From Crystallibacter degradans (GTDB taxonomy: Bacteria > Actinomycetota > Actinomycetes > Actinomycetales > Micrococcaceae): a stretch of DNA of 64,000 nucleotides. The notes below the pieces were generated by a model that was not told the origin of the DNA, did not search any database, and saw nothing but the letters and a program-made list of their open reading frames with translations. The DNA lies in the NCBI RefSeq assembly GCF_012952295.1, contig NZ_JABBCH010000006.1, forward strand, positions 186,001 through 250,000, read 5' to 3'. The position numbers and the translations under genes were made by a program. Below are positions 24,809-54,853 of this stretch, piece by piece (positions within the stretch are counted from its first letter, which is position 1; every line of letters starts with the position of its first letter).

Positions 24809-25510
24809 GTGGAACAGAACCAGGGAACCGGAACTAACCGGAATCATTTTTGCACCATACGGACAGTCCGGCCGCCCACCGGCAATACCAAGGCCGCGCT
24901 ACTGAATGACACAAAGTGGAACGCCACCCAACTCACTGTCGGCTTCCTCGAGGGTGACGCTGATCTGCAGCAGCGCGTGTTGGCGTCGGCACGTAAATGG
25001 ACCGGTCCGGACGTCGCGAATCTGAAATTTTTGGAGGCCGCAGATGGCCCGAGCGATATCCGGGTCGCCTTCCTGCAAGGTGACGGATCCTGGTCCTACC
25101 TCGGGACGCAGGCCCAGCACATCGCCACCGGCGAGCCGACCATGAACTTCGGCTGGCTGACGCCTGAATCGACCGACGACGAAGTCGATGAGGTGGTACT
25201 TCACGAGTTCGGCCACGCCATCGGGCTGATCCATGAGCACCAGAATCCCCAACGGCCGATCCAGTGGAACCGCGCGGCTGTCATCGCCGATCTGTCCGGC
25301 CCACCGAACAACTGGGATGAGCAGACCATCGAGCACAATATCTTCAGCAAGTACAACACAGCGCAGGTCACCGGAACGGACACGGACAGTTCTTCCATCA
25401 TGATGTATCCCATTCCGCTGTCCTGGACCACCGATGGCTTCTCCGCCGGCTTCAACTCCAGGTTGTCCGGGACCGACATCGAATTTATCCGTGGCGCCTA
25501 TCCTTGGTGA
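24809..25510 (+). CDS. M12-type metzincin metalloprotease (cassette 1)
   Basis: A 233-residue zinc protease. The extended motif HEFGHAIGLIH gives ligands His132, His136, His142 and catalytic Glu133; the Met-turn is SIMMYP (Met198/199). The following EHQNP resembles astacin/matrixin relatives. No signal peptide or propeptide is visible, so it is predicted cytosolic or exported by a non-Sec route. GTG start after CAGGAG. It is 29 bp from the caspase gene and has a close paralogue at 51155. Confidence 0.88.
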   Translation: MEQNQGTGTNRNHFCTIRTVRPPTGNTKAALLNDTKWNATQLTVGFLEGDADLQQRVLASARKWTGPDVANLKFLEAADGPSDIRVAFLQGDGSWSYLGTQAQHIATGEPTMNFGWLTPESTDDEVDEVVLHEFGHAIGLIHEHQNPQRPIQWNRAAVIADLSGPPNNWDEQTIEHNIFSKYNTAQVTGTDTDSSSIMMYPIPLSWTTDGFSAGFNSRLSGTDIEFIRGAYPW

Positions 25511-25539
25511 GCGGTTCAGCCTAAAAAGGGGGCCAGAGC

Positions 25540-27918
25540 ATGGCTGACTACGCCATCGTCGTCGGCATCTCGCACTATCCCAAGTTCGCTACCGCAGACG
25601 CCACGGCCGACCTGCAGGGACCGGACACGGATGCGAAGGACATCCATGACTGGCTCATCGATGCCGACGGCGGAGGGCTGAGCTCCGAGAACGTGCGGTT
25701 GATCCGTTCGGCGGACTTCCATCCGCCCAAGCCTGACGAACCGGAGCCGGAAGAAGCCACCATCAGGCGTGCCTTGACCTGGCTCGAAGAGGAGACCGCG
25801 GACCGGCCGGGGGACCGGTTGTACCTGTACTTCTCCGGGCACGGTTTCGCCCCCGTGCTTGAAGAAGGAGCGCTGTTTACCGCCGAGGCTACCAACACCA
25901 TCCCGTCCTACGTTTATGCCTATGACTGGATGCGCAATTTCCGCAAGGCCCGGCGTTTCAGGGACGTCGTCCTGTGGATGGACTGCTGCATGACCCACCA
26001 CCAGACCATCCCGGTCAGCAGTGTTCCCATCCGCGCCGGTGTGGGAACCGGGGTACCGGGTCCTGCCTTCGTGGCCGTTGCCGCCCAGACAAAGAGCGCC
26101 CTGGAACACCAGATGGCGGATGGACAAGTTCACGGCGTCTTCAGCTGGACGCTGCTGCACGGGCTCCGGGGTGGCGCCACGGACGAACACGGCCGGGTAA
26201 CTTCCGAAAGCCTCAAGGCCTTCCTGCATGACACCATGCCGCAGTTCCTTCCGGAGGACGTCCGCAATGCCTCCGCGGTGGACCTGCACCCCTTCATCCG
26301 GGCGGATGCCGGCATCACCTTCCGCCGGTTCCGCAACCGGCCCGCCTATCTGGTCACGCTGGCCTTCCCCCGGGACCTCACCGGACTGGAACTAAAGGTC
26401 TGGACCGGAAGGCCGCACGCCGCCGTCGTTATGGAAAAGATCACCGGAAGCAGTTGGACCGGTGATTTTGTCCGCGGCCTGTATGTCGCGGAAGTTCCGG
26501 ACGCAGGCTTCCGTCACGGTTTTCAGGTCACCGGATCCGGGCCGATGGAAGTGGAAATGCGCGATACCGGGCCGCGGGTTCTGTCGCCTCATCCCACCCG
26601 GCTTTTCACCCTCGATGTGCAGACAGCCAATCCCGCCGCCTCGGTCTCCATCATGGACCACACGCTCAAGCGGATCTTCTCAGACACCGGGGCGCTGCAC
26701 GAGTTCGACGCCCCTGGCGTTTACAAGATCAGGACTGAACTCGGGCGCGACATATCAACGGTGCTCGAACGGATCATTTTGCTGGACCAGGACATGCAAC
26801 CCGCGATGTCCGCTTCGCCTGAGGTGCCCTCCCCTGCGCCCATCCCCGGAACCGCGCTGATCCACGAATCGCACGTAGCGCGCTTTCGCGAAGGGGCCCA
26901 GGCCGACAGCCGCGCGGGCGCCGCCTTGGACGCCCCTACCATTTCCGTGCTGGTCCGTTACTGGCTGGATCCGGAGGACCGCCCGCAGCTTCCCCTTGCC
27001 CACCCGATGGAGGGGCTGGAACTGATCTCGCCAGACGGAACGGTCATCGCTTCCCTGCTGGAGGACAGCAGTCTGGATGGCTCCTCCCCTACGGACCCGG
27101 TTGCTGTGTGGGCACGACGGGTGCCGCCCGGCGCCTACTACCTCCGCCAGACCTTTCGCAGCGGCCGTGCGGGAGAGGCCAGCGTTATAGCTTGCGGAGA
27201 CTGGCTCACCCAGATTGCCTTGCAGCGCTCCCCGGCGGAGCTGGTGCCCGGGCTCGCTGCCAACGACGTTGTACCGCTGGTGGACGCGGCCGTCTTTATG
27301 CGCCCCTACGGCGTGGCAGGCTCAGTAGAGCAGGACCGCGTCGTGGAGTCCGCCCGTCTGGGACTGGCGCAGGGACGGGATCTGCTCGGCAAGAGCCACG
27401 GAATGAATCTGCAGCGGCTCTTGCTAGAAGAGTACAACGATCCAATTGCCGGCATCCTCGGTTGCTATCTGCTGCTCATCGCCATGGAACACAGCCAGCG
27501 CGGGGTGGAAGCCCGGCAAGCCGCCTTCGACGCTGCCGTGGTCCGGCTAGGGAAAATGGTGGGATACGTGCACCCGGACGTAGCCGCTCTGTCGCTGCGC
27601 TGCAGGGACCCCGCCCTACGCACCGCCGGGCCCTTCACCGTACCGCCGATTTTCAGGGCCGGCTGGCAGCTCATGACGCAAGCCAGCTATGCAAACCCCG
27701 AACTGCTACCGGCATCGCTCTGGGAACGGGTGCATGCCGTGACGAATTTCGGTCCGTTCCTGGCCTGGGCCTCCGACCCCGGGTCAAAACGCGTGCACGC
27801 CCGCCAACTGGAGCACTGGATCCAGCGCAGCGGCGCGACGGACAGCCAGGACGCTGCACGCAGGCTTCTCATTCCCGCCCGGGCAATCGGCGTAACAGGG
27901 CAGGGATCGGATGTTTGA
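25540..27918 (+). CDS. Caspase-family (C14) protease, cassette 1
   Basis: A 792-residue protein. The N-terminal caspase fold (residues 1-235) begins DYAIVVGISHYPKF; catalytic His101 is in YFSGHGF and Cys150 in LWMDCCM. The DCC-x pattern replaces the common DCCHSG. Middle and C-terminal parts (about 260-790) are unassigned: beta-rich segments around 265-400, then a helical region with LGLAQGRDLLGKSHG and NDPIAGILGCYLLLIAME. No membrane segment. Start after AAAAAGGGGG. Likely made together with the metzincin; the two may act in one proteolytic cascade. Confidence 0.85.
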   Translation: MADYAIVVGISHYPKFATADATADLQGPDTDAKDIHDWLIDADGGGLSSENVRLIRSADFHPPKPDEPEPEEATIRRALTWLEEETADRPGDRLYLYFSGHGFAPVLEEGALFTAEATNTIPSYVYAYDWMRNFRKARRFRDVVLWMDCCMTHHQTIPVSSVPIRAGVGTGVPGPAFVAVAAQTKSALEHQMADGQVHGVFSWTLLHGLRGGATDEHGRVTSESLKAFLHDTMPQFLPEDVRNASAVDLHPFIRADAGITFRRFRNRPAYLVTLAFPRDLTGLELKVWTGRPHAAVVMEKITGSSWTGDFVRGLYVAEVPDAGFRHGFQVTGSGPMEVEMRDTGPRVLSPHPTRLFTLDVQTANPAASVSIMDHTLKRIFSDTGALHEFDAPGVYKIRTELGRDISTVLERIILLDQDMQPAMSASPEVPSPAPIPGTALIHESHVARFREGAQADSRAGAALDAPTISVLVRYWLDPEDRPQLPLAHPMEGLELISPDGTVIASLLEDSSLDGSSPTDPVAVWARRVPPGAYYLRQTFRSGRAGEASVIACGDWLTQIALQRSPAELVPGLAANDVVPLVDAAVFMRPYGVAGSVEQDRVVESARLGLAQGRDLLGKSHGMNLQRLLLEEYNDPIAGILGCYLLLIAMEHSQRGVEARQAAFDAAVVRLGKMVGYVHPDVAALSLRCRDPALRTAGPFTVPPIFRAGWQLMTQASYANPELLPASLWERVHAVTNFGPFLAWASDPGSKRVHARQLEHWIQRSGATDSQDAARRLLIPARAIGVTGQGSDV

Positions 27919-28489
27919 ATATGCTGTGGCGGAGGGGGTGTTCGTATCGTTCCAGCGCTACCGCTGCCCCGCTGCTGACGGACTCACGGCGCTGCCCACA
28001 AGTGCCGGAGCGCTGCCCCTCTGCATCGTAGGTGCCACAGATGGCGCGGTCCGTCTCCTCGTCGCCCTGCCCGCCGGTGAGGCCTGCTGGATCGGTATCA
28101 CCGGCGCACGCCATGCCGCTCCCGCGTTGATCGGCTTGCTGGCACGAACCGGCGGGAATACCTGGTTGGATTTGCTTTCCGGCGTCGAGCTCCGGAACTT
28201 CACCGCCCACACGTCAACGTGTGTCCCGCCGTCGCGGCAGGTGATCGGCATTCCACAGAACGACGGCGGGTGGTTGCCTTTCTGCCTTGAGCCGGGTTTG
28301 GACGGACTACCGGCGTCGGGAGACCTGGTGCTAGTGGTGGGACCCGATCCTGCCGGCACTGCTGGCCAGCCCAGTGCTGTTACTGTGGAAATCCGTTTCG
28401 CCGGTATCCAGGATTTTGAGCGGGACTGCGGCGAACGCGTGCCCGAGTTGAACACGGATTCGGTCTACAAGGGCCGGCGCCTGCCCTGA
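27911..28489 (+). CDS. Unknown third protein of cassette 1
   Basis: A 192-residue protein with no family I recognise. It is beta-rich, with conserved islands shared with its paralogue at 54236: FVSFQRY, SAGALPLC, GEACWIG, GWLPFC and the near C-terminal CGERVP, ending in GRRLP. Its ATG lies 8 bp inside the caspase stop, so the two are translationally coupled. It may be an adaptor or inhibitor of the caspase; that is inference from coupling only. Confidence 0.75.
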   Translation: MFEYAVAEGVFVSFQRYRCPAADGLTALPTSAGALPLCIVGATDGAVRLLVALPAGEACWIGITGARHAAPALIGLLARTGGNTWLDLLSGVELRNFTAHTSTCVPPSRQVIGIPQNDGGWLPFCLEPGLDGLPASGDLVLVVGPDPAGTAGQPSAVTVEIRFAGIQDFERDCGERVPELNTDSVYKGRRLP

Positions 28490-28564
28490 CCACTCAAGGT
28501 CCGCAGGACCTGATGGCGAAAGTTGGGCGCTGCATTTAGGCCGGCCGGAACTTAGACTTGAGCG

Positions 28565-29296
28565 ATGACAGAGAATTACGCGGAGACTCCCGTCGCGGAA
28601 CAACTCCAAGACCTGATCCTCAGCAACGAGGATGTTGACGACTTCCTCGAGGATCTGGCCGTCTTTTCCTCCAACATCCTTGGCGGGGGCGTCGAGGTGC
28701 ACTGCGGAGTGACTCTCAAGCGGGAGAAGCGGGCGCTCACGGTGGCCAGCAGCAGCGCCCAGGCCACGCTGCTGGACGAGGTCCAGTACGGTTTTGGCGA
28801 GGGACCGTGCCTGCATGCCATTGCCACCGAGCAAACAACGGTCATTGCTGATGTGCGCACGGATAACCGGTGGCCGGATTACTTCGCGGCCGTTGCCGAG
28901 TATGGCTTTTACTCCATGATGGGAGTGCCGCTGATCCTGGGCGAAAGCGGCGGTGCTGCCTTGAACTTCTATGCGCGGGAGCCGGACACCTTCGGGCCGG
29001 ACGCCGTCCGGACTGCGGAAGGCTATGCAGCCCAGGCCTCGCGAACCCTGCAGTTGGCCTTGCGTCTTGCCTACAGCACGGAAACAGCAGACCACCTCAA
29101 GCGGGCCATGGACTCGCGGACCACTATCGATCTCGCCGTCGGCATCATCATGGGCCAGAACCGCTGCAGCCAGGACGAGGCGTTCAGCATCCTGAAGAAC
29201 GCCTCCAGCAGCCGGAACATCAAGCTCCGCGAGATCGCAGCCGGAATTGTGGCCGCTATCGGCCAGGGACCGGCCCAAACGGTCTTCGATGACTAG
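28565..29296 (+). CDS. GAF and ANTAR domain protein
   Basis: A 243-residue regulator. GAF domain at about 30-165 (GFGEGPCLHAI, VADVRTDNRWPDY-like), then an ANTAR RNA-binding domain at about 175-235 (IDLAVGIIMGQNRCSQDEAFSILKN). ANTAR proteins act by antitermination on tandem hairpins in mRNA leaders. It follows the cassette by 75 bp but is also common alone in actinobacteria, so a link is uncertain. Confidence 0.9.
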   Translation: MTENYAETPVAEQLQDLILSNEDVDDFLEDLAVFSSNILGGGVEVHCGVTLKREKRALTVASSSAQATLLDEVQYGFGEGPCLHAIATEQTTVIADVRTDNRWPDYFAAVAEYGFYSMMGVPLILGESGGAALNFYAREPDTFGPDAVRTAEGYAAQASRTLQLALRLAYSTETADHLKRAMDSRTTIDLAVGIIMGQNRCSQDEAFSILKNASSSRNIKLREIAAGIVAAIGQGPAQTVFDD

Positions 29297-29305
29297 GCGC
29301 GCGTC

Positions 29306-29629
29306 CTAATAACCGGTGCCCAAGGACGTGCACAGAGGCGTCTCGGCCAGCGCAGCTTCGTTCTGGCAGCGCTCCGTCACATACCTGCTGGGAAGCGTAT
29401 TGCCCAGAACGCCCTGATGCGCCTCGGAAGCCGCCTCGAACTCGCTCAAATTGGAGCACGCGGTGAAGGCCGGCTCCAGGAACTTATCGGTGTCCTGCAG
29501 CTCCCGTTCCTTGTCGGCCGCGGCGAAAGCTTCCATGCAACCGGCGGATTCGTTGCCACTGCTGTCGCCGCAGCCGGTCAGAGCCAGCGCGGCCACGGCC
29601 AGAACCGCCAATCCCCGTGGAATATCCAT
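29306..29629 (-). CDS. Small lipoprotein
   Basis: A 107-residue predicted lipoprotein: hydrophobic signal and lipobox LTGC near residue 19-22, then a soluble domain with four further Cys likely forming disulphides (SAGCMEAF, FTACSN, ERCQNE, PLCTSL). Start at MDIPRG. Converges with the GAF-ANTAR gene. Function unknown. Confidence 0.75.
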   Translation of the reverse strand: MDIPRGLAVLAVAALALTGCGDSSGNESAGCMEAFAAADKERELQDTDKFLEPAFTACSNLSEFEAASEAHQGVLGNTLPSRYVTERCQNEAALAETPLCTSLGTGY

Positions 29630-29687
29630 AGGCCGAGCATACGCCCGCCGCCATCGTGCCGGACCGGAACGGGCAAGAAAGTTCATC

Positions 29688-30473
29688 CTAGGATCCGGCT
29701 GGCTTCGGCAGGCTCCGCTCCAGATCAGGCAGCTTGCTTTCGGTCACCGGCTGGATGCTGGTCACTGTGGCGAAGCCGGCTGCCAGCAACGCGAAGTCGC
29801 TCTCCGGCGGCGCCTCCTCTTTGCTGTCTGCAATGGCCAGGCGAAGATGCTGCTGCCCGCGTTCGGCCATGGTGGTCTGCACGATACCGAATTCGGCCAG
29901 CGTGGCCGTGCGGTATTCAGGCAGCTCAGGCGAGTCCGTGTTCGGCACGTTGAGGTTCAGCACGGTGCCGGCCTCCTGCTCCAGCAGGAACGGCACCAGC
30001 CCGGTGGCCAGCCGCGCGGCGTTGTCCCAGTATAGGTGGGCCGGATGCATGCCGGTGTCGAGGGAGACGGCCATCCCGTGGCCGCCGTTGATGCCCGCGG
30101 TCAGCGCGGCGCCTACCGTGCCGGAGTGCAGGATCACGCGGCCGACGTTCGCGCCGCGGTTCACCCCGGAAAGTACGACGTCGGGCGGGTCGCCGAAGGC
30201 GCCATGGGTAGCAATCATGGCAATGAAGCCCGGCGCACCGTGGACCGCATACGCCGGAACGCCGTCGAGGCCTTCCAGCTTCCGCTCCTCGATGCGGATG
30301 CGGCCCTCGTCCTCCCGGGCGGTGATGGAGGCGCTGCTGCCGCTGGCTTCCACCACCGGTGCGGCAACCGTGACGTTGAGCCCGGCCTCCACGGCACCGG
30401 CCGCCAAGGCATGCAGACCCAGGGAGTCGATGCCGTCGTCGTTCGTGATCAGGACCATCTTGGGCTTGTTCAT
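29688..30473 (-). CDS. surE: 5'/3'-nucleotidase SurE
   Basis: A 261-residue SurE phosphatase, removing phosphate from nucleoside monophosphates. Metal-binding N11-D12-D13 in VLITNDDGIDS, SGVNRGANVGR and the SGTVGAAL segment are intact. It overlaps the upstream PfkB kinase gene by 4 bp, suggesting one operon concerned with nucleoside or sugar phosphates. Confidence 0.92.
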   Translation of the reverse strand: MNKPKMVLITNDDGIDSLGLHALAAGAVEAGLNVTVAAPVVEASGSSASITAREDEGRIRIEERKLEGLDGVPAYAVHGAPGFIAMIATHGAFGDPPDVVLSGVNRGANVGRVILHSGTVGAALTAGINGGHGMAVSLDTGMHPAHLYWDNAARLATGLVPFLLEQEAGTVLNLNVPNTDSPELPEYRTATLAEFGIVQTTMAERGQQHLRLAIADSKEEAPPESDFALLAAGFATVTSIQPVTESKLPDLERSLPKPAGS

Positions 30474-31456
30474 TGTTTCCGTATCTTCTGCGCCAGCTCG
30501 TCCGGACTAATTTGCTGCGACTGATCTGCTTCAGCCTCGCCCTCGAAGGGAGCCACCTTCACCAGGCTGCTCAGCTTGTGGATCGCGGCGGCCTCGCCGG
30601 TGCCCAGGCCGTGCCGGGTCACGTTCAGCGCGCCGGCAGCCGTTCCCAGCACCACCGCTTCATGCATCGAGCCGCCGTCGGACAGGGTCGCGGCGACACC
30701 GGCAGTCAGCGAATCGCCGGCTCCGCTGGTGTCCACGCTCTGCATCTCCGGCATGTGTATCTCGCTGACCTCGCCCTCCTCCAGCAGCAGGGACGGCAGA
30801 TGGGCACGGGTGACAATCACCGTTTCCGCGCCCTCTTCGTTCAGCTTACGCATCGCCTCGACAATGTCGGCCGGGCTGGAGCTGGCCGCGCGGCCGGACT
30901 CCACGAGCTCGTCGTCGGCGATCTTGAGCACGGCCAGGCCACCGGCCAAAGAAGCGGACAGCCGCTCCCCCGTCAGATCGGTAATGACCCGGCACCCGGC
31001 GGTCCGGAGATCCGCGGCCAGCCGCCGGTACACATCGGCCGGCACCGCGTCCTCCCGGGCGGCGCCGCTGAGGATCACCGTTCCGGCGTCCATCCCCGCT
31101 TTGATGGTCAGGCCGTACAGCTCGTCGAGCTCGTGGCGGGAGAGCTTGTCACCCGGGGATTCGGCGACCACCTTCCGGCCGCCGTCCCGCCGGTCGTGGA
31201 TGTAGGCGCCGCCGTTGCCCTGGCCCTCCACCGAGAGCACATGGACACCTTCATCGGCGATCAGATGGCGCACTATGCGGCCGGTCTCGCCGGAAAACAC
31301 ACCGCACATCGTGACCGAAGCGCCCAGGGCCGTAAGCATCCGCGCCTGCCACACGCCCTGGCCTCCGGCGTGGAGGTGGATGTCGGCGGTGCCTTCCACA
31401 TCCTCCACGGTCACGGTCAGCACCGGCGACGGCGCAAATATCACTACGGAGCCCAT
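30470..31456 (-). CDS. PfkB-family carbohydrate kinase
   Basis: A 328-residue ribokinase-fold kinase. HAGGQGVWQARMLTALGA is the substrate-site motif and DTSGAGDSLTAG holds the anion hole and catalytic Asp. Resembles 1-phosphofructokinase/tagatose kinases but the substrate is unclear. It precedes and overlaps surE. Confidence 0.85.
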   Translation of the reverse strand: MGSVVIFAPSPVLTVTVEDVEGTADIHLHAGGQGVWQARMLTALGASVTMCGVFSGETGRIVRHLIADEGVHVLSVEGQGNGGAYIHDRRDGGRKVVAESPGDKLSRHELDELYGLTIKAGMDAGTVILSGAAREDAVPADVYRRLAADLRTAGCRVITDLTGERLSASLAGGLAVLKIADDELVESGRAASSSPADIVEAMRKLNEEGAETVIVTRAHLPSLLLEEGEVSEIHMPEMQSVDTSGAGDSLTAGVAATLSDGGSMHEAVVLGTAAGALNVTRHGLGTGEAAAIHKLSSLVKVAPFEGEAEADQSQQISPDELAQKIRKQ

Positions 31457-31611
31457 CGCAGGCTCCTCTCAGTCCGGCGTTCAGCCATGCCAGCCTCCTT
31501 GCCTCGGGAAGCCGCGCAGATGCGCCCCGCCCGATATTGATTGCGGTCTCGGATGGAATGGATCCTGCTTCCGACACTAACCCCGCTTCAAGGACCGGAC
31601 AATGGGATCCG

Positions 31612-32265
31612 CTATTTCCGCGGCTTGCCGTGCTCGTCCGTCCGGACCGACTGGGTGACGAACTTGTTGCAGAACATCGCAAACGAGCCGTCCTGCCGCT
31701 GCACCAGGGTGGCACCGTCCTGCCAGATGCCGTTTTCCGCCGACCACGGCGAATCGAGCGGGTCACCCTGGTTCTGGTGGATGTTGTGCACGCCCAGGCC
31801 GTCCTGGAACGGTTCGCCGAACACCCAGAGCCGCTGCGACACTTCAAGCAGCGGCTCGAGGTCGGCGAGCGCCTCGGTGCTCACGCCCGACTTCCACGGC
31901 ACGGGGAAATGTACCCGGAACACGGCGGCCAGCAGGCCCGGAATGCACCCCAGATGGTGCCGCCAGCTCAAGTCCTTGTTGCGGATGAAGTCCAGCGCGC
32001 CGGAATCCGGCGTGGACTCGAGTGGATGCCAGCCATCGGCTAGCTTGTTTACGCCCTTGAGCATTGAAGGCCGCAGCTCGATGACCCGCCACTGAACGCC
32101 GTTCGGGACGGCCTTGCTGTCGACATCGATGGCACAGTTGTACACACCATCCGTCGTGCGCAGCCGCAGGTTCCCGTGGAAGTACTGCCCGTAGTCGTTC
32201 GGTGGATCCCGGAAGTAGTCCTCTTTGACCCCCGCGACCACCCCGTACCCATGATTCAATGCCAT
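31612..32265 (-). CDS. DUF2278 family protein
   Basis: A 217-residue protein of the YukJ-like DUF2278 family, recognised by LNHGYGVVAGVKEDY, the RTTDGVYNCAIDVDS strand pair and the distal GVHNIHQNQGDP. Biochemical role is unknown for the family. Single gene; no signal peptide. Confidence 0.8.
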   Translation of the reverse strand: MALNHGYGVVAGVKEDYFRDPPNDYGQYFHGNLRLRTTDGVYNCAIDVDSKAVPNGVQWRVIELRPSMLKGVNKLADGWHPLESTPDSGALDFIRNKDLSWRHHLGCIPGLLAAVFRVHFPVPWKSGVSTEALADLEPLLEVSQRLWVFGEPFQDGLGVHNIHQNQGDPLDSPWSAENGIWQDGATLVQRQDGSFAMFCNKFVTQSVRTDEHGKPRK

Positions 32266-32524
32266 AGGAACCGCCTCACCTGCCCGACGCTGGGCTGTTC
32301 CTCACATCCTAGGCACGGTTCCCGGCCTCCCGCCAGAACCTACCCCACACTGAACCTTGCCCCTGAGCAGGAAAAACAGTCAAAGCACGACGGCGGGTGG
32401 CAGGCTACGTTCTATGCTTTACGCTGACCCTTGCGACTTCTGCCGTCTGCCCCTTAGGTTGAGAGGCGAAGACCAAATGGGGCTGTCCCGATTGGTCAAT
32501 CGAAAGAGCACTGGGAGAAGAATC

Positions 32525-47082: not shown

Positions 47083-48501
47083 ATGCCCCGCACCATGCGT
47101 CAACGCTGCCGCACGATTGTTTCAACTTCCGCACTTTCAGTCCTGCTCGCCGCCGCGTCCTTCTCCCCTGCCGCCGTTGCTGCTCCGCCGGCATCCGACG
47201 CCGGCACCGCAACCGACACCGATGCGCAGCAAGTACCGTCCACCGTCGCCACCGGGACGCTCGACAACGAAGCCACCTGGCGCGCCGAAGTGCCCGGGGA
47301 CTGGAACGGCAAGCTGGTGCTCTTCGCCCATGGCTTCCGCGGCGGCATCGACAACCCAGCCTGGGACAAAGGTTTCGCCCCCACCGCGACAGAACTAATC
47401 AAGCGTGGGTACGCCGTCGCATCGTCGTCGTACGCCGAAACCGGCTGGGCGCTGGAGACGGCCGCGCAGGACCAGCTCGACACTATGGCCGGGTTCGAGA
47501 AGCAGTTCGGCGAAGCGGACCGCGTCATTGCCGTTGGCCGGTCCATGGGCGGCCTCGTGACCAGCATGATGGCCGAGATTCCGGGAGCCGGCATCGACGG
47601 CGCCGTGAGCACCTGCGGCTTGGTCGGCGGCGGAGTGGCTCTGAACAACTACCAGCTCGATGCGGCGCACGCGGCGGCAGCGCTCCTCCTCCCCGGACGG
47701 GACATCCGGCTGACCGGCTTCACCGCGCCGGAGCAGTCCGACGCGACCATCGCCAGCCTGCGGGCGGCGCTGCAAGAAGCCACGGAATCAGCCGAGGGCA
47801 GGGCGCGGATCGCACTCGTGGCGGCCCTGCTGAACACTCCCACCGAGCTCGACGACGTCGACGTGACGGATCCGGAAGCGCTGGCAGCCACCCAGGCAAA
47901 GCTGGTGCTGGACACCCTGCCGACCGTCATCGAGCGCCGGCACACCATCGTGAACGCGGCAGGCGGGGACAGCGGCTGGACCTCGGGCGTCGACTACGCC
48001 AAGCTTCTGCGCTCCTCCGACCAGCGTAAGCAGGTGGAACACATGTACAAACTGTCCGGTGTCGATCTGTCTGCCGACCTCGCCAGCATCACGGCCAACG
48101 CTGCCATCAAGCCCGATGAAGACGGCCTTGAGTGGATGCTGCGTACCTCCACCCCGACGGGCGAACTGCAGGTGCCGCTGCTGGCAACGCACACCCTCGT
48201 GGACCTGCTGGCACCGGTGGAGTACCAGGAGGAGTACGCCGAAACCGTCCGTCAGGCCGGCGAGCGCTCCTTGTTCCGCCAGGCCTTCGTGGACCGCGAG
48301 GGACACTGCAACTTCACCGTGGCCGAGAACGTCGCCTCGGTCGAAGCCATGGACCAGCGCCTGGAGACCGGCAACTGGGCCAACGTGGCCAAGACCTCCG
48401 TCTTGCAGGAAAACGCCGAGGCAATGGGTCTCGACGGCGCCGCCTTCGTCGACTTCCGGCCCGGTGAGTTCATCAACGACCGAGCCTGGACCGGCCGCTA
48501 A
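47083..48501 (+). CDS. Secreted alpha/beta hydrolase
   Basis: A 472-residue exported protein. Signal peptide ends around AVAAPPA. Oxyanion motif FAHGFRGG, nucleophile Ser154 in VGRSMGG, and a late His in REGHCNF. Such enzymes include peptidases and esterases; substrate unknown. ATG at 47083 follows GAGGT; GTG 47071 is less likely. Confidence 0.83.
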   Translation: MPRTMRQRCRTIVSTSALSVLLAAASFSPAAVAAPPASDAGTATDTDAQQVPSTVATGTLDNEATWRAEVPGDWNGKLVLFAHGFRGGIDNPAWDKGFAPTATELIKRGYAVASSSYAETGWALETAAQDQLDTMAGFEKQFGEADRVIAVGRSMGGLVTSMMAEIPGAGIDGAVSTCGLVGGGVALNNYQLDAAHAAAALLLPGRDIRLTGFTAPEQSDATIASLRAALQEATESAEGRARIALVAALLNTPTELDDVDVTDPEALAATQAKLVLDTLPTVIERRHTIVNAAGGDSGWTSGVDYAKLLRSSDQRKQVEHMYKLSGVDLSADLASITANAAIKPDEDGLEWMLRTSTPTGELQVPLLATHTLVDLLAPVEYQEEYAETVRQAGERSLFRQAFVDREGHCNFTVAENVASVEAMDQRLETGNWANVAKTSVLQENAEAMGLDGAAFVDFRPGEFINDRAWTGR

Positions 48502-48529
48502 CCCGAGTTGGCCTCCACGCCATAGCGAC

Positions 48530-48560
48530 GGCGGTGCCCGGCTTACTGCCGGGCATCGCC
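48530..48560. terminator. 13-bp hairpin between convergent genes
   Basis: GGCGGTGCCCGGC and GCCGGGCATCGCC flank TTACT; one G-U pair. TCTGTCTGTG follows. Serves the hydrolase and the 98-residue gene that converge here. Confidence 0.7.
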
Positions 48561-48576
48561 TCTGTCTGTGGCCCGA

Positions 48577-48873
48577 CTACATCAGCAGGTTGTGCAGCGG
48601 GATCTCCGTGGCTTCCGGCATGGTTGTAAACCCGCCCTCCACACCCTTCTGCAGCAAGGGCATGAGTGTGCTGTCACGGAAAGACTCCCAGCTTTCCTTC
48701 GATCCGTGGACGGCGATGACCCTCCAGCCGCCGTCGGATGGTCCGGCGGCGTGGAAGATCTGCCCCGTCGGCCGCTGGCCTTCGCCCGGATGGGCCGCGG
48801 CCACCGATGCCTCGTACTGGTCCTTGGTGCCGCCGGGAAAGAAATGCACGATCGCGTAGGCCGACGTTTCCAT
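48577..48873 (-). CDS. Small dimeric alpha/beta-barrel-like protein
   Basis: A 98-residue protein with the beta-alpha-beta pattern of antibiotic-biosynthesis-monooxygenase-like folds: YAIVHFFPGGTKDQYEASV, then WRVIAVHGSKESWESFRD. ATG at 48873 follows AAGGAGG; the frame extends upstream without start signals. Function unknown. Confidence 0.75.
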   Translation of the reverse strand: METSAYAIVHFFPGGTKDQYEASVAAAHPGEGQRPTGQIFHAAGPSDGGWRVIAVHGSKESWESFRDSTLMPLLQKGVEGGFTTMPEATEIPLHNLLM

Positions 48874-49035
48874 GAGTGCCTCCTTCGACTGTTGGAATGA
48901 ACCAATGGTGGCCCTGTAGCGCCGGGCAGACAATAGGCCTTCCGCCATACTTCGGCTCCCACATGACTGTGTGTCACGGTTAGGACCAAAGTCCCTAGTA
49001 ATCCGCAGTGCTGAATCGTTATCCTGAACGTGACG

Positions 49036-49083
49036 CATCAACAAAACCACGGCTTCGTTGGGGAGGCCGCGGCTTTGTTGATG
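49036..49083 (-). repeat. 18-bp inverted repeat
   Basis: Arms start CATCAACAAA and end TTTGTTGATG. Two A-C mismatches on plus-strand RNA become G-U pairs on minus-strand RNA, so the minus transcript forms a continuous stem with a 12-base loop. Confidence 0.6.
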
Positions 49084-49100
49084 AAGGCTGGGGGAAATCC

Positions 49101-49140
49101 GTGTGGAGCCTGGCGCATTGGGGAACAACAGGCTCCACAC
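49101..49140. repeat. 12-bp perfect inverted repeat
   Basis: GTGTGGAGCCTG and CAGGCTCCACAC flank 16 bases, 17 bp after the previous hairpin. Confidence 0.6.
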
Positions 49141-49311
49141 AACTCCTGCCGCTCGCCGGCCGACGCCGGAACAGCGAAACTCACTGCGCTTATTCAGGAA
49201 CGCCGCAGTTCATGCCCACACAACGTGTCGCCATCCTTAGACTTAGCCAGCTTCTGCCTGCCCCATGTACGATCCAAAGAACATTTATTTCGATGTGGGG
49301 GCAGAATAAAT

Positions 49312-50121
49312 ATGGATCACTCGGGGGCACCGCCCAAGCGCAACGTTGCGGTTTTCCTAGACATGGAAAACCTCATGGGTGGGTATCAAAAGGACGTCAA
49401 ATCGGTTCCCATCGGCAGCATAGTTAGAGAAGTACAAAATGTGGTTCAAAGCCACGGCGTAGGATCACTCGTTGCTTTAACGAGGGCGTACGCCAACTGG
49501 GGCAGAGCTGACATGGCGGCCTATCGACGGGAAATGCTGGAAAACGGCGTCGAGCCCGTTCAGGTCTTTTCGTTCAATCAAGATGTCAAAAACGCTGCAG
49601 ACATTGAACTCGTGGTTGATGCCCTTGAGGTCGCAACCGATTCCCCGTGGGTCGACGTTTTTGTCATCGTCAGCGGTGATGGCGGGTATATCCCTCTGAT
49701 AAGGCGGCTTCACGTCTTGGGCAAATACACGATGGTTGTCACCACATCCCATTTTGCTTCTGGCAGGGTCAGTAAGCTCTTACGCTCAGCGGCCGATCAC
49801 TTTCACACGATTCAGCTGGATGACGGAGCGGTAGCGGAAAGTAGCGTAACGGCCGAGACCAGTCGCATTCCGACCATTACCGAATACAAACAGTCGATCG
49901 ACGCATTCCTGAAAAAGGATCCCACACTCACTGTTAATGGTCGCGTACAAGGCGCTGGGTTAGGCACTCTACTCCGTAAACGTTGGCCTGACGGAGATTA
50001 CAAAAATTTTGGTCACCGAACATTGGGATCATTCGTGGAAGAACACTGTGGCAAGCAGATGTTTCGCCCAAACACCACCAACCTTGCCCCGGCCACAGGT
50101 GAATTGGCGAGCATCCGCTAG
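49312..50121 (+). CDS. NYN-domain (PIN-like) protein with C-terminal OST-HTH-like domain
   Basis: A 269-residue putative ribonuclease. NYN domain at 10-165: VAVFLDMENLMGGY with the first acidic residues, KNAADIELVVDAL and VFVIVSGDGGYIPLIRRL with the later Asp residues of the metal site. The C-terminal 80 residues (GAGLGTLLRKRWPDGDYKNFGHRTLGSFVEE) resemble the LOTUS/OST-HTH RNA-binding fold. Base composition is visibly less GC-rich than neighbours, suggesting transfer. Start at 49312, after GGGGGCAG; longer frames are unsupported. Confidence 0.83.
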   Translation: MDHSGAPPKRNVAVFLDMENLMGGYQKDVKSVPIGSIVREVQNVVQSHGVGSLVALTRAYANWGRADMAAYRREMLENGVEPVQVFSFNQDVKNAADIELVVDALEVATDSPWVDVFVIVSGDGGYIPLIRRLHVLGKYTMVVTTSHFASGRVSKLLRSAADHFHTIQLDDGAVAESSVTAETSRIPTITEYKQSIDAFLKKDPTLTVNGRVQGAGLGTLLRKRWPDGDYKNFGHRTLGSFVEEHCGKQMFRPNTTNLAPATGELASIR

Positions 50122-50177
50122 ACGAGCTCGCGTCGGGAATGAAGTGACCCTGGACTTCGCCACAAACTAAGTACGAC

Positions 50178-50208
50178 GGCGGGTGGTTGCCTTAGGCAGC
50201 CACCCGCC
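50178..50208 (+). terminator. 14-bp hairpin, ACGACGGCG family
   Basis: GGCGGGTGGTTGCC and GGCAGCCACCCGCC flank TTA, 57 bp after the NYN stop, followed by GCTTCGTTCT. Confidence 0.75.
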
Positions 50209-50363
50209 GCTTCGTTCTGCGAGGCGTCACGGCCGCATCAAGAATTCCTGTGCGAAGCACGACTGCATAACTGTCCTTGTGAGCCCGATTCGGGCGCGCC
50301 TAATCTGGAATTTAGGGACGTGCAGCAGGGCTGAGAGGCCCTTGACCCGCAGGAGGGATTGCC

Positions 50364-51005
50364 ATGAAAGCAGAAGCCGCTGGGGCAGGCCACTACGAAA
50401 GCCACCGGGACCATCCGGCACGGCCAACCAGGCTTGGCGGGGTGAAAATCGGCTCCGCTTTCTTCGGTTGGATGACAGCCACCGGCATTTTCGTCCTGCT
50501 GGCCGGACTCGCCGCCGCGATCGGCGCCCTCTTCGGCATCGCCGGCAGCGCCGACCCGAGCCTCCTTGCCGAACAAGCGGGACAAGGCCTGCAGAGCATT
50601 AGCATCATCGGTGCGGTGATTCTGGCCGTCATCACCTTCCTCGCCTACTTTTCCGGCGGTTACGTCGCCGGCCGCATGGCGCGTTACGACGGAGCCAGGC
50701 AGGGTGTCGCCGTCTGGCTTTGGGCCGTCGTCGTAGCGGGGATTATCGCCGCGCTCGGAACCGTGACCGGCACGGTGTCCGGAGCGCAACTGGATGTCCC
50801 GGCCCTCCTTGCCAGCTTCCCCGGGGTTCCTCTCAATGAGGGGACGATGACAACCGGCGGAATAGTGGTGCTGATCGGCATCGGGCTGCTCTCGCTTGTG
50901 GCCGCTGTACTAGGCGGCAAGGCCGGCATGCATTATCACCGCAAGGTCGATCAGACCGAGGCAAGCGGCTATGCAGACTGGAACGCCGACGGCAGCGGCG
51001 CCTGA
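50364..51005 (+). CDS. Four-TM membrane protein
   Basis: A 213-residue integral membrane protein with hydrophobic helices at about 35-60, 78-100, 112-135 and 168-190. Has Gly-rich helices and a YVAGRMARYDGARQG loop, similar to YrzE/TIGR04086-like proteins. ATG after AGGAGGGATTGCC. Function unknown. Confidence 0.78.
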   Translation: MKAEAAGAGHYESHRDHPARPTRLGGVKIGSAFFGWMTATGIFVLLAGLAAAIGALFGIAGSADPSLLAEQAGQGLQSISIIGAVILAVITFLAYFSGGYVAGRMARYDGARQGVAVWLWAVVVAGIIAALGTVTGTVSGAQLDVPALLASFPGVPLNEGTMTTGGIVVLIGIGLLSLVAAVLGGKAGMHYHRKVDQTEASGYADWNADGSGA

Positions 51006-51023
51006 CCTTCAGCTTCCAGACGG

Positions 51024-51060
51024 ACGACGGCGAGTGGTTGCGTTACGCAGCTTGCCGTCG
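51024..51060 (+). terminator. Hairpin, ACGACGGCG family
   Basis: CGACGGC and GCCGTCG close a hairpin whose inner TGCG/CGCA arms also pair; it ends 16 bp before the SARP-like repeats of cassette 2 and is followed by TTCT. Confidence 0.6.
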
Positions 51061-51075
51061 TTCTGCGGCTACTCC

Positions 51076-51120
51076 GATAACGCCGCAGTAACGCGCCAGT
51101 AACGCTCTTCCTGCTACACC
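51076..51120 (+). promoter_or_regulatory. Putative SARP operator and promoter, site 2
   Basis: Three direct repeats, GATAACGC (51076), AGTAACGC (51087) and AGTAACGC (51098), each start exactly 11 bp after the last. Eight bp later lies CTACACC (51114-51120) as -10-like box. The 34-bp gap to the metzincin start holds the AAGGAGA ribosome site. Confidence 0.65.
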
Positions 51121-51154
51121 GAGCCCATTCCCAATCCAGCCCAAGGAGACAGCC

Positions 51155-51844
51155 ATGGACCAGCACGGGGTCAACAAGGACCATTTCTGCACGATCCGCA
51201 CCGTTCAGGACGTGTCCGGCAATACCAAGGCGGCGCTGCTCAACGAAGCTAAATGGACCGTCTCCCGGCTGACCGTGGGCTTCCTGGAAGGCGACCCCCA
51301 GCTGCGGCAGCGCGTGATCGATGTGGCCCGCGAATGGACCGGCCCGGACATGGCGAACCTGGAGTTCCTGGAGGATGGATCGGAAGCGGATATCCGGATC
51401 GCGTTCCAGCAGGGCAACGGCTCATGGTCCTTCCTCGGGACCCATGCCCAGCAGATCCCGGCAGACGAGCCGACCATGAACTATGGGTGGCTCACGCCAG
51501 ATTCAACGGACGACGACGTCCGGCGGGTCGTGCTGCACGAGTTCGGCCACGCGGTCGGGTTGATCCATGAGCACCAGAACCCGGAGAAGCCGATCCAGTG
51601 GAACCGTGCAGCGGTCATTGCGGATTTGTCCGGACCGCCGAACAATTGGGATGAACAGACGATCGAGAACAACATTTTCAAGAAGTACAACGCGCAGGAT
51701 GTCACGGGGACGGACACGGACAAGGATTCGATCATGATGTATCCCCTCCCGCAGTCCTGGACCCTGGACGGCTTTTCGGCAGGCCTGAACTCGGATCTGT
51801 CCGATACCGACAAGGAGTTCATCCGGTCCGCGTATCCTTGGTGA
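51155..51844 (+). CDS. M12-type metzincin metalloprotease (cassette 2)
   Basis: A 229-residue paralogue of the protease at 24809 with the same fold and no signal peptide. Zinc ligands His128, His132, His138 in HEFGHAVGLIH, Met-turn SIMMYP. Nearly the whole length aligns, with many conservative changes, so the duplication is not recent. ATG after AAGGAGACAGCC, 26 bp ahead of the caspase gene. Confidence 0.88.
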   Translation: MDQHGVNKDHFCTIRTVQDVSGNTKAALLNEAKWTVSRLTVGFLEGDPQLRQRVIDVAREWTGPDMANLEFLEDGSEADIRIAFQQGNGSWSFLGTHAQQIPADEPTMNYGWLTPDSTDDDVRRVVLHEFGHAVGLIHEHQNPEKPIQWNRAAVIADLSGPPNNWDEQTIENNIFKKYNAQDVTGTDTDKDSIMMYPLPQSWTLDGFSAGLNSDLSDTDKEFIRSAYPW

Positions 51845-51870
51845 GGCGGCCGCCGACGTAAGGAGACAGC

Positions 51871-54243
51871 GTGGAGGACTACGCCGTCGTCGTCGGCATT
51901 TCGCGGTATCCGAAGTTCGCCCCGGCCGGTAGCACCGCGGATCTTGTGGGGCCGGACACTGATGCGCTGGACATCCGCAATTGGCTCGCGGCGGACGACG
52001 GCGGCGGCCTCGTCCCGGAGAACATCCGGATGATCCGCTCGGCGGACTTCGACCCGACCCCGGCGGATCCGCAGCCCGAGGAGGCCCGGATCCGCAAGGC
52101 GCTGGCGTCGCTCGTGGAGCAGACGGCTGACCGCATGGGCGGGCGCCTCTACCTCTACTTCTCAGGCCACGGCTTCGCCCCGGTGCTGGAGGAAGGGGCG
52201 CTCTTCACCGCCGAGGCCTCCCTGAGCATCCCCACCTACGTGTACGCCTACGACTGGCTGCGCAGCTTCCGCAAGGCGCTGCGCTTCCGCGAGTACGTGC
52301 TCTGGATGGACTGCTGCATGACGCACCAGCAGACCATCCCTGTCAGCAACGTGGTAATCCGCGCCGGCACCGGCACCGGCGTTCCCGGACCCGCCTTCGT
52401 GGCGGTCGCCGCCCAGACCAAGAGCGCGCTGGAACACCGGATGCCGGATGGAAGGGTGCACGGGGTCTTCAGCTACACCCTGCTCCAAGGCCTGCGCGGC
52501 GGGGCCACGGACGAGCACGGCCGCATCACGGCAGAGAGCCTGAAGTCCTTTCTGCACGACACCATGCCGGAATTCCTGCCGGATCAGGCCCGCAATGCAT
52601 CGGCCGTGGACCTGCATCCGTACATTCGGGCCGATTCCGGCATCCTTTTCCGCCGACTGCGCAGCCGGCCTACCTACTCGGTGCGCCTCGACTTCCCGCC
52701 AGGTGCCGTCGATCAGGAACTGAAACTGTGGACCGGAAGGCCGCACGCCGCCGTCGTCCGCCAAAAGCTGACGGGGAGTTCCTGGCAGGGCGAGCTGGTG
52801 CGCGGGTTGTATATGGCGGAAATTGCCGACGCCGGTGTGCGGCACGGTTTCCAGGTCACCGGTGCGGGGGCGCGGCACCTCCGCCTGTCGGATCTCGGCG
52901 AGCCGGTCAGGCCGCCGCATCCCACCCAGCTGTTCAGCATCGATGTCCGGGCCGCGAATCCGGCGGCGACCATTTCGGTGCTGGACCACAACCTGCAGCG
53001 CATCTTCTCCGATACCGGCGCCCTGCACGAGTTCGATGCGCCCGGGGTCTACAAGATCCGGGTCGAGCTGGGCCGGGACATTTCAAGCGTGTCCGAACAG
53101 GTCATCCTGCTGGATGCGGACATGGAGACAGCCTTCCTTTCCGCGCCGGAGGTTCCCTCGCCGGCGCCGATTCCCGGCAGCGCCCTCGCCAGCAAAGCGC
53201 ACGCGGAGCCGTTCCTCGATGCCGCGGCAAGGGACAGCCTGTTGCACGGTACAGGCCAGCCCTCAAGCGGCCTCTCCATACTGGCGCGGTACTGGCTGGA
53301 CGACGACGCCCCCGTACAGCCGCCGGGGAACCCCTTGGAGGGCCTTCGGTTGTTCTCCGCCGACGGCCAGCTGCTGGTGGACCTCGGGGCGGGCCACGTC
53401 AGCCGGCCCAAGGACGTGGCGATCTGGGAGCGCGCCCTGGAACCGGGCGCCTACTTCCTCCGCCACACCTTCCGCAGCGGCCGCACCGGCGAGGCCACGG
53501 TCATGGTCTGCGACGGATGGTTGACCCAGATCGCGTTGCAGCGCTCCCCTGCCCTGCTCGTTCCCGGCACCCCGCTCGACGACATCATGCCGATCGTCGA
53601 CGCCGCCGTGTTCATGCGGGGACCGGACGCCGGCGCCCCGCCGGCCAGCGAAGACAAAGTCCTGGAAACGGCGCGGCTGGCCCTCGCCCAGGGGCGGGAC
53701 CTGCTCGGCAAGCCGCACGGCAGCGGGCTGCAGAAACTACTGCTGGAGGACTACGCAGATCCTTTGGCCGGCATCATCGGCTGCTACCTGCTGCTGATCG
53801 CGATGGACGGCGCCAACGGCGGAACCACCGCCCAGCATGCCCAGTTCGACGCCGCCGTCGTCCGCCTCGCCTCCATGGTCGGTGACTGGCACCCGGATGT
53901 GGCGGCCCTGTCGTTGCGCTGCTCGGATCCAGCACTGCGCAGGACCGCGCCGATGGCCGTGCCGCCAATCTTTCGGTACGGCTGGCAGCTGATCGTCGAG
54001 GCCAGTTACACCCACCCGGAGCTGGTGCCCGAAGCACTCTGGCAGCGTGTCCACGCCGTCACGAACTTCGGCCCGTACCTGACTTGGGCGGCGGACGAAC
54101 GGGCCAAGCGTCTGCATGCGCGCCAACTGCAGCACTGGTTCGATGCCAAGGCCGATGACGCGAACGGCGCGGGCCCGGACGCAGGGAACCGGTTGCAGAT
54201 TCCGGCTTCGGCCGCGGCCTCACTGCGCAGCCGCCGTGTTTGA
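51871..54243 (+). CDS. Caspase-family (C14) protease, cassette 2
   Basis: A 790-residue paralogue of the protein at 25540, aligning over its full length. Caspase domain with His100 (YFSGHGF) and Cys149 (LWMDCCM); the same middle and C-terminal regions follow, including LALAQGRDLLGKPHG and the GCYLLLIAMD helix. GTG start after AAGGAGACAGC. Lacks signal peptide and membrane segments. Located upstream of the eCIS genes, it could be an injected effector, a processing protease or an internal cell-death enzyme. Confidence 0.85.
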   Translation: MEDYAVVVGISRYPKFAPAGSTADLVGPDTDALDIRNWLAADDGGGLVPENIRMIRSADFDPTPADPQPEEARIRKALASLVEQTADRMGGRLYLYFSGHGFAPVLEEGALFTAEASLSIPTYVYAYDWLRSFRKALRFREYVLWMDCCMTHQQTIPVSNVVIRAGTGTGVPGPAFVAVAAQTKSALEHRMPDGRVHGVFSYTLLQGLRGGATDEHGRITAESLKSFLHDTMPEFLPDQARNASAVDLHPYIRADSGILFRRLRSRPTYSVRLDFPPGAVDQELKLWTGRPHAAVVRQKLTGSSWQGELVRGLYMAEIADAGVRHGFQVTGAGARHLRLSDLGEPVRPPHPTQLFSIDVRAANPAATISVLDHNLQRIFSDTGALHEFDAPGVYKIRVELGRDISSVSEQVILLDADMETAFLSAPEVPSPAPIPGSALASKAHAEPFLDAAARDSLLHGTGQPSSGLSILARYWLDDDAPVQPPGNPLEGLRLFSADGQLLVDLGAGHVSRPKDVAIWERALEPGAYFLRHTFRSGRTGEATVMVCDGWLTQIALQRSPALLVPGTPLDDIMPIVDAAVFMRGPDAGAPPASEDKVLETARLALAQGRDLLGKPHGSGLQKLLLEDYADPLAGIIGCYLLLIAMDGANGGTTAQHAQFDAAVVRLASMVGDWHPDVAALSLRCSDPALRRTAPMAVPPIFRYGWQLIVEASYTHPELVPEALWQRVHAVTNFGPYLTWAADERAKRLHARQLQHWFDAKADDANGAGPDAGNRLQIPASAAASLRSRRV

Positions 54244-54853
54244 ACTGCCGCTGGCCGACGGCATCACGGCATCCTTCCAGCGCTTCCCTTCCCCCGACAA
54301 CGGCCTGCTGGCCCGCCGTCCGCCGAGCGCCGGCGCGCTGCCGCTCTGCCCCGCCGGAGACGGCGGCTTCGTATGCGCACTGCCGGACGGCGAGGCGTGC
54401 TGGATCGGGTTGACGGCCAGGCCCGGAGCCGCCATGGTTCTGGTCGGTGTGCTGGCGGAGCTGTCCGACGGCTCCCCGATCGACGTCCTTTCCGGCGCGC
54501 GGCTGTCCGGCGCTGGGACCGGCGCTGGGACCGGCGGCGGCCTTGCGGCGGTCCAACCGGTTGAATTGCTTTCGGTTCCGCCGTCCGCGCAGGTGGCCGG
54601 CATCCTCCGCCCCGGCGACGGATGGCTGGCGTTGTGCCGCGAGTCTCGCACAGCGGCAGCGGGAGGGAACACGGGGTCGCCGGAAGCGCTGGCGGTGCGC
54701 CTGCACCTGGTGGTCCGTCCGGCACCGGACCAGGCCCGGGAACAGCGCAGCACCGCCGTCGAACTGGTGGACGGTTCCCGCTTCCGGCAGGAATGCGGCG
54801 AGCGCGTTCCCGCCCCCTCGCCGACCGTCTACGGCGGCTGGCGGCTGCCCTGA
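54236..54853 (+). CDS. Unknown third protein of cassette 2
   Basis: A 205-residue paralogue of the protein at 27911; conserved blocks FELPLADGI, SFQRF, SAGALPLC, GEACWIG, CGERVP and terminal WRLP. The chosen GTG at 54236 gives the same N-terminus and exactly the same 8-bp overlap with the caspase stop as in cassette 1; an in-frame ATG at 54116 lies deep in the caspase gene. It has an extra Gly/Ala-Gly-Thr repeat (GAGTGAGTGGG) absent from copy 1. Confidence 0.75.
   Translation: MFELPLADGITASFQRFPSPDNGLLARRPPSAGALPLCPAGDGGFVCALPDGEACWIGLTARPGAAMVLVGVLAELSDGSPIDVLSGARLSGAGTGAGTGGGLAAVQPVELLSVPPSAQVAGILRPGDGWLALCRESRTAAAGGNTGSPEALAVRLHLVVRPAPDQAREQRSTAVELVDGSRFRQECGERVPAPSPTVYGGWRLP

What the first reader, a model, noticed from the sequence alone, without database searches (positions are those of the whole stretch)
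24809..54853. Duplicated metzincin - caspase - unknown protein cassette
Genes at 24809, 25540 and 27911 are repeated, diverged but full length, at 51155, 51871 and 54236 in the same order. Catalytic residues of both proteases are kept in both copies (HEFGHxxGLIH; SGHGF with DCC). A zinc protease next to a caspase without a signal peptide suggests a proteolytic cascade for regulated cell death or defence. The third protein has no family I know. I am not aware of this combination being described; it cannot be excluded.
Basis: partly seen in the sequence, partly recalled or inferred. Interest (0 to 1): 0.85.

Follow-up and report, generated by a model that had tools for sequence, protein, structure and literature searches.

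The report
Bacterial caspase and latched metalloprotease cassette
A soil bacterium carries two intact, long-diverged copies of a gene cassette that pairs a caspase-like protease with a metalloprotease that looks built to stay locked until its front end is cut off, which suggests a bacterial protease cascade for defence or self-killing that can now be tested.

Summary
In detail: two intact copies of metzincin, caspase and unknown protein in the same order (74, 66, 38% identical).

A genome scan with caspase motifs alone gave 16 loci in Actinomycetota and Pseudomonadota; all 16 have the metzincin directly upstream, 9 of 16 the third gene.

Relatives keep caspase and C-module but swap the upstream enzyme for a subtilase or an alpha/beta-hydrolase-like protein, once beside a phage integrase; others add nuclease and trypsin domains. 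This fits a modular conflict system that works like canu. The third protein is predicted to be a beta-sandwich with a disordered, conserved tail.

No function was tested. A contractile injection system adjoins copy 2 but is not generally linked.

The parts
24809..25510 (+). copy 1 metzincin (myroilysin-like astacin), 233 aa; latch Cys15 at 24851-24853, Lys28 at 24890-24892, HEFGHAIGLIHE at 25202-25237
   Evidence: ORF; PF00413/PF01400 above cut-off; myroilysin; alignment A4
25540..27918 (+). copy 1 caspase fused to C-module, 792 aa; His101 at 25840-25842, catalytic Cys150 at 25987-25989
   Evidence: ORF; PF00656; alignment A5
27911..28489 (+). copy 1 third protein, 192 aa, overlaps the caspase gene by 8 bases; predicted beta-sandwich; C-terminus YKGRRLP
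   Evidence: no family
51155..51844 (+). copy 2 metzincin, 229 aa; latch Cys12 at 51188-51190, Lys25 at 51227-51229, HEFGHAVGLIHE at 51536-51571
51871..54243 (+). copy 2 caspase fused to C-module, 790 aa; His100 at 52168-52170, catalytic Cys149 at 52315-52317; residues 1-265 model as a metacaspase fold
52918..54240 (+). C-module of the copy 2 caspase (about residues 350-790): predicted strands to about 583, then helices; a separate gene in L018, L019, L020, L031, L032, L083, L087, L090 and fused to trypsin plus NucA or PLD domains in L034 and L089
54236..54853 (+). copy 2 third protein, 205 aa, GTG start, C-terminus YGGWRLP
23850..24653 (-). BTAD-domain protein divergent from copy 1; a relative lies upstream of the cassette in Pseudonocardia nigra (L010)
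   Evidence: role inferred
54856..56208 (-). PKD-domain protein convergent with copy 2; also beside the cassette in L005, L007 and L025
58396..59658 (+). contractile injection system sheath (neighbour, probably not part of the cassette)
   Evidence: PF04984/PF17482; PHROG tail sheath
59660..63688 (+). contractile injection system tube (59660-60145), CIS_tube-family protein (61367-62161), VgrG/baseplate-hub-like protein (62165-63688); baseplate J follows beyond the window

Best explanation
The cassette is an intracellular two-protease switch. The metzincin is made as a latent zymogen: its N-terminal cysteine occupies the catalytic zinc, as in pro-myroilysin. The caspase, through its C-module and possibly the third protein, senses a trigger and cuts the metzincin after Lys25 (Lys28 in copy 1). 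This removes the latch, and the freed metalloprotease then degrades cell proteins, arresting or killing the cell. Caspase plus C-module is the constant initiator; the 5' enzyme is the exchangeable effector. Shown by sequence: conserved gene order, conserved latch cysteine and basic site, conserved catalytic residues, swapped partner enzymes. Inferred: the cut, its specificity, the trigger, the lethal or defensive outcome, and the role of the third protein (most likely a partner of the metzincin, for example inhibitor, chaperone or sensor).
Confidence: 0.45

Rival explanations
1. The caspase and metzincin are a stress or developmental protein-processing pair (turnover or signalling), not a killing or defence device; the metzincin trims a few targets and no phage is involved.
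For: Ten window neighbours show no specific defence gene. The genus keeps it in 7 of 10 genomes. BTAD and GAF-ANTAR genes flank copy 1. SCO6992 affects antibiotic production (PMC9705864).
Against: Patchy spread: Micrococcaceae 7 of 197, all one genus; 2 of 300 and 2 of 297 in two proteobacterial orders. Occurs on plasmid records and, as a variant, on a viral contig. Partners are exchangeable degradative enzymes. The third gene evolves fast.
Confidence: 0.25
2. The cassette proteins are cargo or regulators of the neighbouring contractile injection system.
For: The sheath gene starts about 3.5 kb after copy 2 and about 2.2 kb after the cassette of A. crystallopoietes (L005). Copy 2 and this cluster lie in one recently exchanged block of about 15.6 kb.
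Against: The window genome has one sheath match, at copy 2 only. Of 7 cassette genomes in the genus, the sheath is adjacent in 3 (window genome, G397, G402), elsewhere in 1 (G399), absent in 3. Of 12 genomes behind loci, only G405 (A. crystallopoietes again) has it adjacent; 4 others have a match elsewhere, one of them weak.
Confidence: 0.07
3. The metzincin is not a protease in vivo but a zinc-dependent hydrolase of another kind (as reported for SCO6992), and the caspase cut controls that activity or has nothing to do with it.
For: NCBIfam NF050131 (AbsR1, beta-glucuronidase) matches copy 2 at 1.8e-43, though far below its cut-off (148.9 against 650 bits). SCO6992 bound zinc but had no caseinolytic activity (PMC9705864).
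Against: Myroilysin, an established protease, is the closest solved relative, and the zinc motif, catalytic Glu, Met-turn and Tyr are kept. SCO6992 was assayed as an MBP fusion with its N-terminal cysteine present.
Confidence: 0.12

Closest known systems
Canu (caspase-nuclease) defence loci, KaeCanABC (PMC12799240, abstract and passages seen)
   Same: Caspase-family protease encoded next to an enzyme thought to be a proenzyme that it activates, plus a further protein. That paper names Ig-like and TPR domains in these loci; the C-module here is predicted as strand-rich followed by helices. In A. mangrovi (L007) a caspase, a second protein and an LmuA-like nuclease lie directly upstream of this cassette.
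   Different: The effector here is a cysteine-latched metalloprotease, not an MBL-fold nuclease. The C-module shows no significant match to the middle protein of the L007 trio (E 0.15). No comparison with KaeCanABC itself was run.
Kaur et al. 2020 System 3 (NucA plus trypsin/S8 peptidases) and System 4 (EACC1-caspase) (PMC7159879, passages seen)
   Same: Multi-peptidase conflict systems in alphaproteobacteria and actinobacteria. Rhizobial relatives of this cassette carry NucA, trypsin and subtilase domains. The copy 2 caspase matches the EACC1-associated caspase model at 57.8 bits.
   Different: The passages I saw do not describe a metzincin-caspase pair, the C-module or the third protein. EACC1 itself was not sought with a model.
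Myroilysin (M12A astacin, cysteine switch; PDB 5czw, 5gwd, 5zjk)
   Same: Catalytic domain, basic residue at the mature N-terminus, Glu after the third His, latch cysteine (PMC9848320, passages).
   Different: Aligned Cys at residue 8-22 with no signal-peptide-like stretch, given the starts I chose; linked to a caspase.
SCO6992/AbsR1 (PMC9705864, abstract and passages seen)
   Same: Same MMP-like zinc domain and an N-terminal cysteine.
   Different: Longer (359 aa). Two sequences beginning MTARYCS like it, L038 and L040, lack the basic residue and have no caspase in their fetched flanks.

Membership tests
Astacin/M12A, myroilysin type | HExxHxxGxxHE zinc motif plus Met-turn with Tyr | tested here: met
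   17 of 17 rows keep H128, E129, H132, H138, E139, M194, Y196
Astacin/M12A, myroilysin type | cysteine-switch prosegment | tested here: inconclusive
   Cys invariant 17/17, basic residue at the mature N-terminus 16/17; zinc contact not modelled
Metacaspase-like C14 peptidase | caspase fold with catalytic His and Cys | tested here: met
Metacaspase-like C14 peptidase | acidic S1 pocket, cleavage after Lys/Arg | tested here: inconclusive
   D31 aligns with the metacaspase G-C-x-N-D Asp; D147 invariant; the pocket role of these residues is recalled; no assay; pLDDT under 50 near the site
Canu | MBL-fold pro-nuclease CanC in the cassette | tested here: not met
   The cassette proteins of both copies hit no MBL model in Pfam. 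Neighbours were scanned only in part; of those, L007 has one next door
EACC1-caspase (NF047832) | caspase model score above cut-off, EACC1 as the 5' gene | tested here: not met
   57.8 bits against cut-off 140; the 5' gene is a metzincin
NucA-peptidase System 3 | NucA endonuclease plus trypsin-like peptidase | tested here: not met
   Not among the window cassette proteins; both domains in relatives L032 and L034; L085 has a NucA gene next to it
Contractile injection system effector | conserved linkage to the injection gene cluster | tested here: not met
   Adjacent in 3 of 7 cassette genomes of the genus
Bacterial gasdermin (considered for the third protein) | gasdermin fold | tested here: inconclusive
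Anti-phage defence system | protects against phage | not testable with these tools
   needs experiment

The most novel reading that the evidence does not exclude
A previously undescribed family of bacterial conflict systems built on a caspase plus C-module initiator with exchangeable degradative effectors (cysteine-latched astacin, subtilase, alpha/beta-hydrolase-like enzyme, NucA-trypsin or PLD-trypsin), in which the actinobacterial form is an intracellular caspase-to-metalloprotease cascade with its own dedicated, fast-evolving beta-sandwich third protein.
Probability: 0.4. Interest if true: 0.8.

Novelty: new variant of a known kind. Interest (0 to 1): 0.62.

Why it matters
Caspase cascades that switch on other enzymes are a hallmark of animal cell death. 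Bacterial caspases are reported to act with gasdermins and to activate a nuclease (PMC12799240), but I found no description of one paired with a latched metalloprotease (searches, in the held open-access library only). The cassette makes single-residue predictions (latch cysteine, Lys25-Ala26 bond, caspase Cys149), offers a reason why SCO6992 showed no proteolysis, and shows one initiator module recruiting at least three kinds of effector enzyme.

Tried and rejected
Rejected: decay or strain-confined duplication. Injection-system cargo as the general explanation. Phage records: caspase tblastn found none in 50,697 records; viral contigs gave one contig, found twice; the third protein gave none there. 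C-module as homologue of the middle protein of the L007 trio: not significant (E 0.15). Third protein: no match in Pfam, PHROGs, PADLOC or NCBIfam; two PDB profile searches gave only E 1.5 and 0.32; Foldseek none at E 0.001 or better; no clear relative in the second look, which does not show that the fold is new. Conserved Lys184 as a caspase self-processing site: dropped, Lys in 7 of 13. Third-protein tail as a substrate mimic of the caspase: dropped, L030 ends YQGYQLP.

The JBC myroilysin paper is not held. The C-module fold was not searched on its own.

Known flaws: early notebook entries give the third gene in 10 of 16 loci; the count is 9. In one search one alignment row (L083C) was in the wrong frame and held stop signs; it was rebuilt with the same conclusion for L034. 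The 18 solitary controls leave out three of the 21 hits: two L074 rows that duplicate L069, and a weak second L036 hit. Among the 18, L063 comes from the Janthinobacterium genome that has a cassette on another contig, L071 is cut at its start, and L069 582-1304 has lost the zinc-motif Glu. The 17 caspase-linked rows include both window copies and L033, whose caspase is of another type. Metzincin starts in A4 were partly chosen by eye, and rows L008, L009 and L013 begin one residue off a start codon; this also limits the signal-peptide check. The 13 of 21 count for the third gene treats L013 (contig end) and L083 (short flank) as absent. Several genome surveys score only a few first-look candidates per genome, so their counts are lower bounds.
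Full report
OBSERVATION. Both cassettes are real, complete and in the same order. Copy 1 against copy 2 is 74% (metzincin), 66% (caspase) and 38% (third) identical by BLASTP. The gaps between metzincin and caspase are 29 and 26 bases; the third gene overlaps the caspase gene by 8 bases in both. The genome is 4.96 Mb in 124 contigs and the window lies near the end of contig 81. The nearest relatives found are Arthrobacter.

AGE AND CONSTRAINT. On the caspase tree copy 1 (with its counterpart in Arthrobacter sp. VKM Ac-2550) branches outside the group of copy 2, A. crystallopoietes, A. mangrovi and G404, which has 98/97 support; the shorter metzincin tree does not resolve this. The copies are old paralogues, or copy 1 came from a related lineage. 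dN/dS is 0.07-0.25 for metzincin and caspase and 0.34-0.81 for the third gene in the comparisons with measurable divergence; copy 2 of the window and of VKM Ac-2550 are too alike to give a ratio.

CONSERVATION OF THE PAIR. A scan of genome contigs with two caspase peptide patterns gave 73 stretches, of which 16 encode a relative, in 15 assemblies; two loci are VKM Ac-2550 and two are near-identical Methylococcaceae bins. In 16 of 16 the metzincin lies immediately upstream. The third gene is found in 9 of 16; L013 runs off its contig about 400 bases after the caspase. Four more loci with metzincin and caspase are L025, L030 on a plasmid, and L083 and L085 from genome surveys. L033 in Bradyrhizobium barranii has a metzincin beside a caspase of another type: 30% identical to the second caspase of L007, no match to the window caspase.

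PREVALENCE. Caspase profile: 7 of 10 genomes of the genus, 7 of 197 in the family, all one genus, 2 of 300 in the order of the Janthinobacterium genome, 2 of 297 in the order of the Bradyrhizobium genome. The single-sequence caspase search found 1 of 396 in the phylum, the window genome itself. Metzincin profile, solitary relatives included: 7 of 296 in the phylum and 10 of 349 in the Pseudomonas phylum sample. Most of these searches score few candidates per genome and give lower bounds.

THE METZINCIN. The profile of A4 (17 rows) matches solved myroilysin at E 1e-76 to 1e-77; the best matrix metalloproteinase is at 1e-5. [quoted passage not shown] Here Cys12 is invariant (17/17), the Glu is invariant (17/17), and a Lys or Arg is present in 16 of 17 at the column of the Arg that precedes the first residue of chain 5zjk. 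That 5zjk is the mature form is inferred from its start and from the title of a cited paper. With the starts I chose, N-termini show no signal-peptide-like stretch (maximum 12-residue hydropathy 1.62), so an intracellular location is inferred.

CONTROL FOR THE LATCH. Eighteen relatives with no caspase in their fetched flanks (about 1.5 kb where the contig allows) have an upstream Cys in 13, a basic residue at that column in 10, and both in 6, against 16 of 17 caspase-linked (Fisher 0.045, 0.018 and 3e-4, not corrected for shared ancestry). The traits are partly ancestral; their combination is what is enriched. The metzincins of L084 and L085 also show both.

MODULAR RELATIVES. In L018, L019 and L020 caspase and C-module are separate genes. 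In L031 a subtilase takes the metzincin's place. In L034, L087, L089 and L090 a mutually related protein does (32-33% identical to that of L087); Pfam scores it as alpha/beta hydrolase below cut-off in L087 and L089 and not at all in L034, and PGAP names the L089 gene alpha/beta hydrolase. In L032 no 5' enzyme was recognised and a NucA-trypsin protein follows; in L034 the C-module is fused to trypsin and NucA; in L089 to trypsin and PLD. L085 has a NucA gene tail to tail with a full membrane protein-metzincin-caspase-third set. L087 lies on an IMG/VR contig with an integrase upstream and YqaJ and recombination-directionality genes downstream. The third gene occurs in 13 of 21 metzincin-bearing loci and 0 of 6 without (Fisher 0.016, not corrected for kinship), so it goes with the metzincin. 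In L033 a weak third-like gene (E 2e-6) precedes the metzincin.

NEIGHBOURHOODS. A. mangrovi (L007) has a caspase, a second protein and an LmuA-like MBL nuclease (E 1.4e-59) ending 49 bases before the metzincin; I call this canu-like from its order, without comparison to KaeCanABC. A. hankyongi has a patatin phospholipase and a TIR protein, Pseudonocardia a CHAT protein, and the S. terangae plasmid an ATPase-HNH pair matching PADLOC candidate PDC-M01. I chose these neighbours and ran no background rate. Ten window neighbours gave no specific defence hit (a response regulator on CARF/SduA models, a weak NYN). A small membrane protein lies upstream in 5 of 16 loci (four by clustering, L019 by reading) and in L085 (56% to L012), all proteobacterial.

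LITERATURE. Canu loci encode a caspase that activates a pro-nuclease and protect E. coli against T4 (PMC12799240, abstract and passages). Kaur et al. describe NucA-peptidase and EACC1-caspase conflict systems (PMC7159879, passages). I found no description of a metzincin-caspase cassette in the open-access library with the searches; subscription papers and supplements were not searched.

CONTRACTILE INJECTION SYSTEM. Copy 2 lies upstream of sheath, tube, VgrG-like and baseplate genes. From about 50,448 through the window end and about 2 kb further the sequence is nearly identical to VKM Ac-2550 (17 mismatches in the 13.2 kb from 50,800), against about 94-99% in other 2-kb bins, apart from a short identical stretch at 49.5-50.0 kb. 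Cassette copy 2 and this cluster were therefore probably exchanged together recently. Linkage is not general.

VERDICT. A real, conserved, duplicated cassette, best read as a caspase-controlled latent metalloprotease within a modular conflict-system family. It works like canu but lacks its defining nuclease, so it is not filed there.

Noticed in passing
window 50448-64000 and first 2 kb of L002: About 15.6 kb nearly identical to Arthrobacter sp. VKM Ac-2550 inside a 94-99% background: a recent exchange block carrying copy 2, the PKD gene, an insertion sequence and the injection-system core.
   Followed up: partly
L007 4669-9221: A. mangrovi: Tle1-like phospholipase, caspase, a protein without Pfam match and an LmuA-like MBL nuclease in a row, a canu-like order directly upstream of the cassette.
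   Followed up: partly
window 54856-56208 (-): PKD-domain protein with a hydrophobic C-terminal segment (by eye), kept beside the cassette in L005, L007 and L025.
   Followed up: no
window 23850-24653 (-) and L010 8250-9206: BTAD-domain protein next to the cassette in two actinobacterial lineages.
   Followed up: no
NCBIfam NF050131: The model named beta-glucuronidase AbsR1 matches a myroilysin-like zinc protease; the N-terminal cysteine of SCO6992 could explain its lack of protease activity.
   Followed up: partly
L033 1-16603: Bradyrhizobium barranii plasmid: third-like gene, M12 protease, caspase of the L007-upstream type, and a 1788-aa protein with two trypsin stretches and a PLD domain.
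   Followed up: partly
window 57716-63688 and L002: Contractile injection cluster: sheath, tube, CIS_tube, VgrG-like, baseplate J, P2 I-like and PASTA proteins in the seven ORFs scanned; an ATPase and a tape measure were not systematically sought.
   Followed up: partly
window 49030-50121: NYN-domain protein with a sub-cut-off OST-HTH match upstream of copy 2.
   Followed up: no
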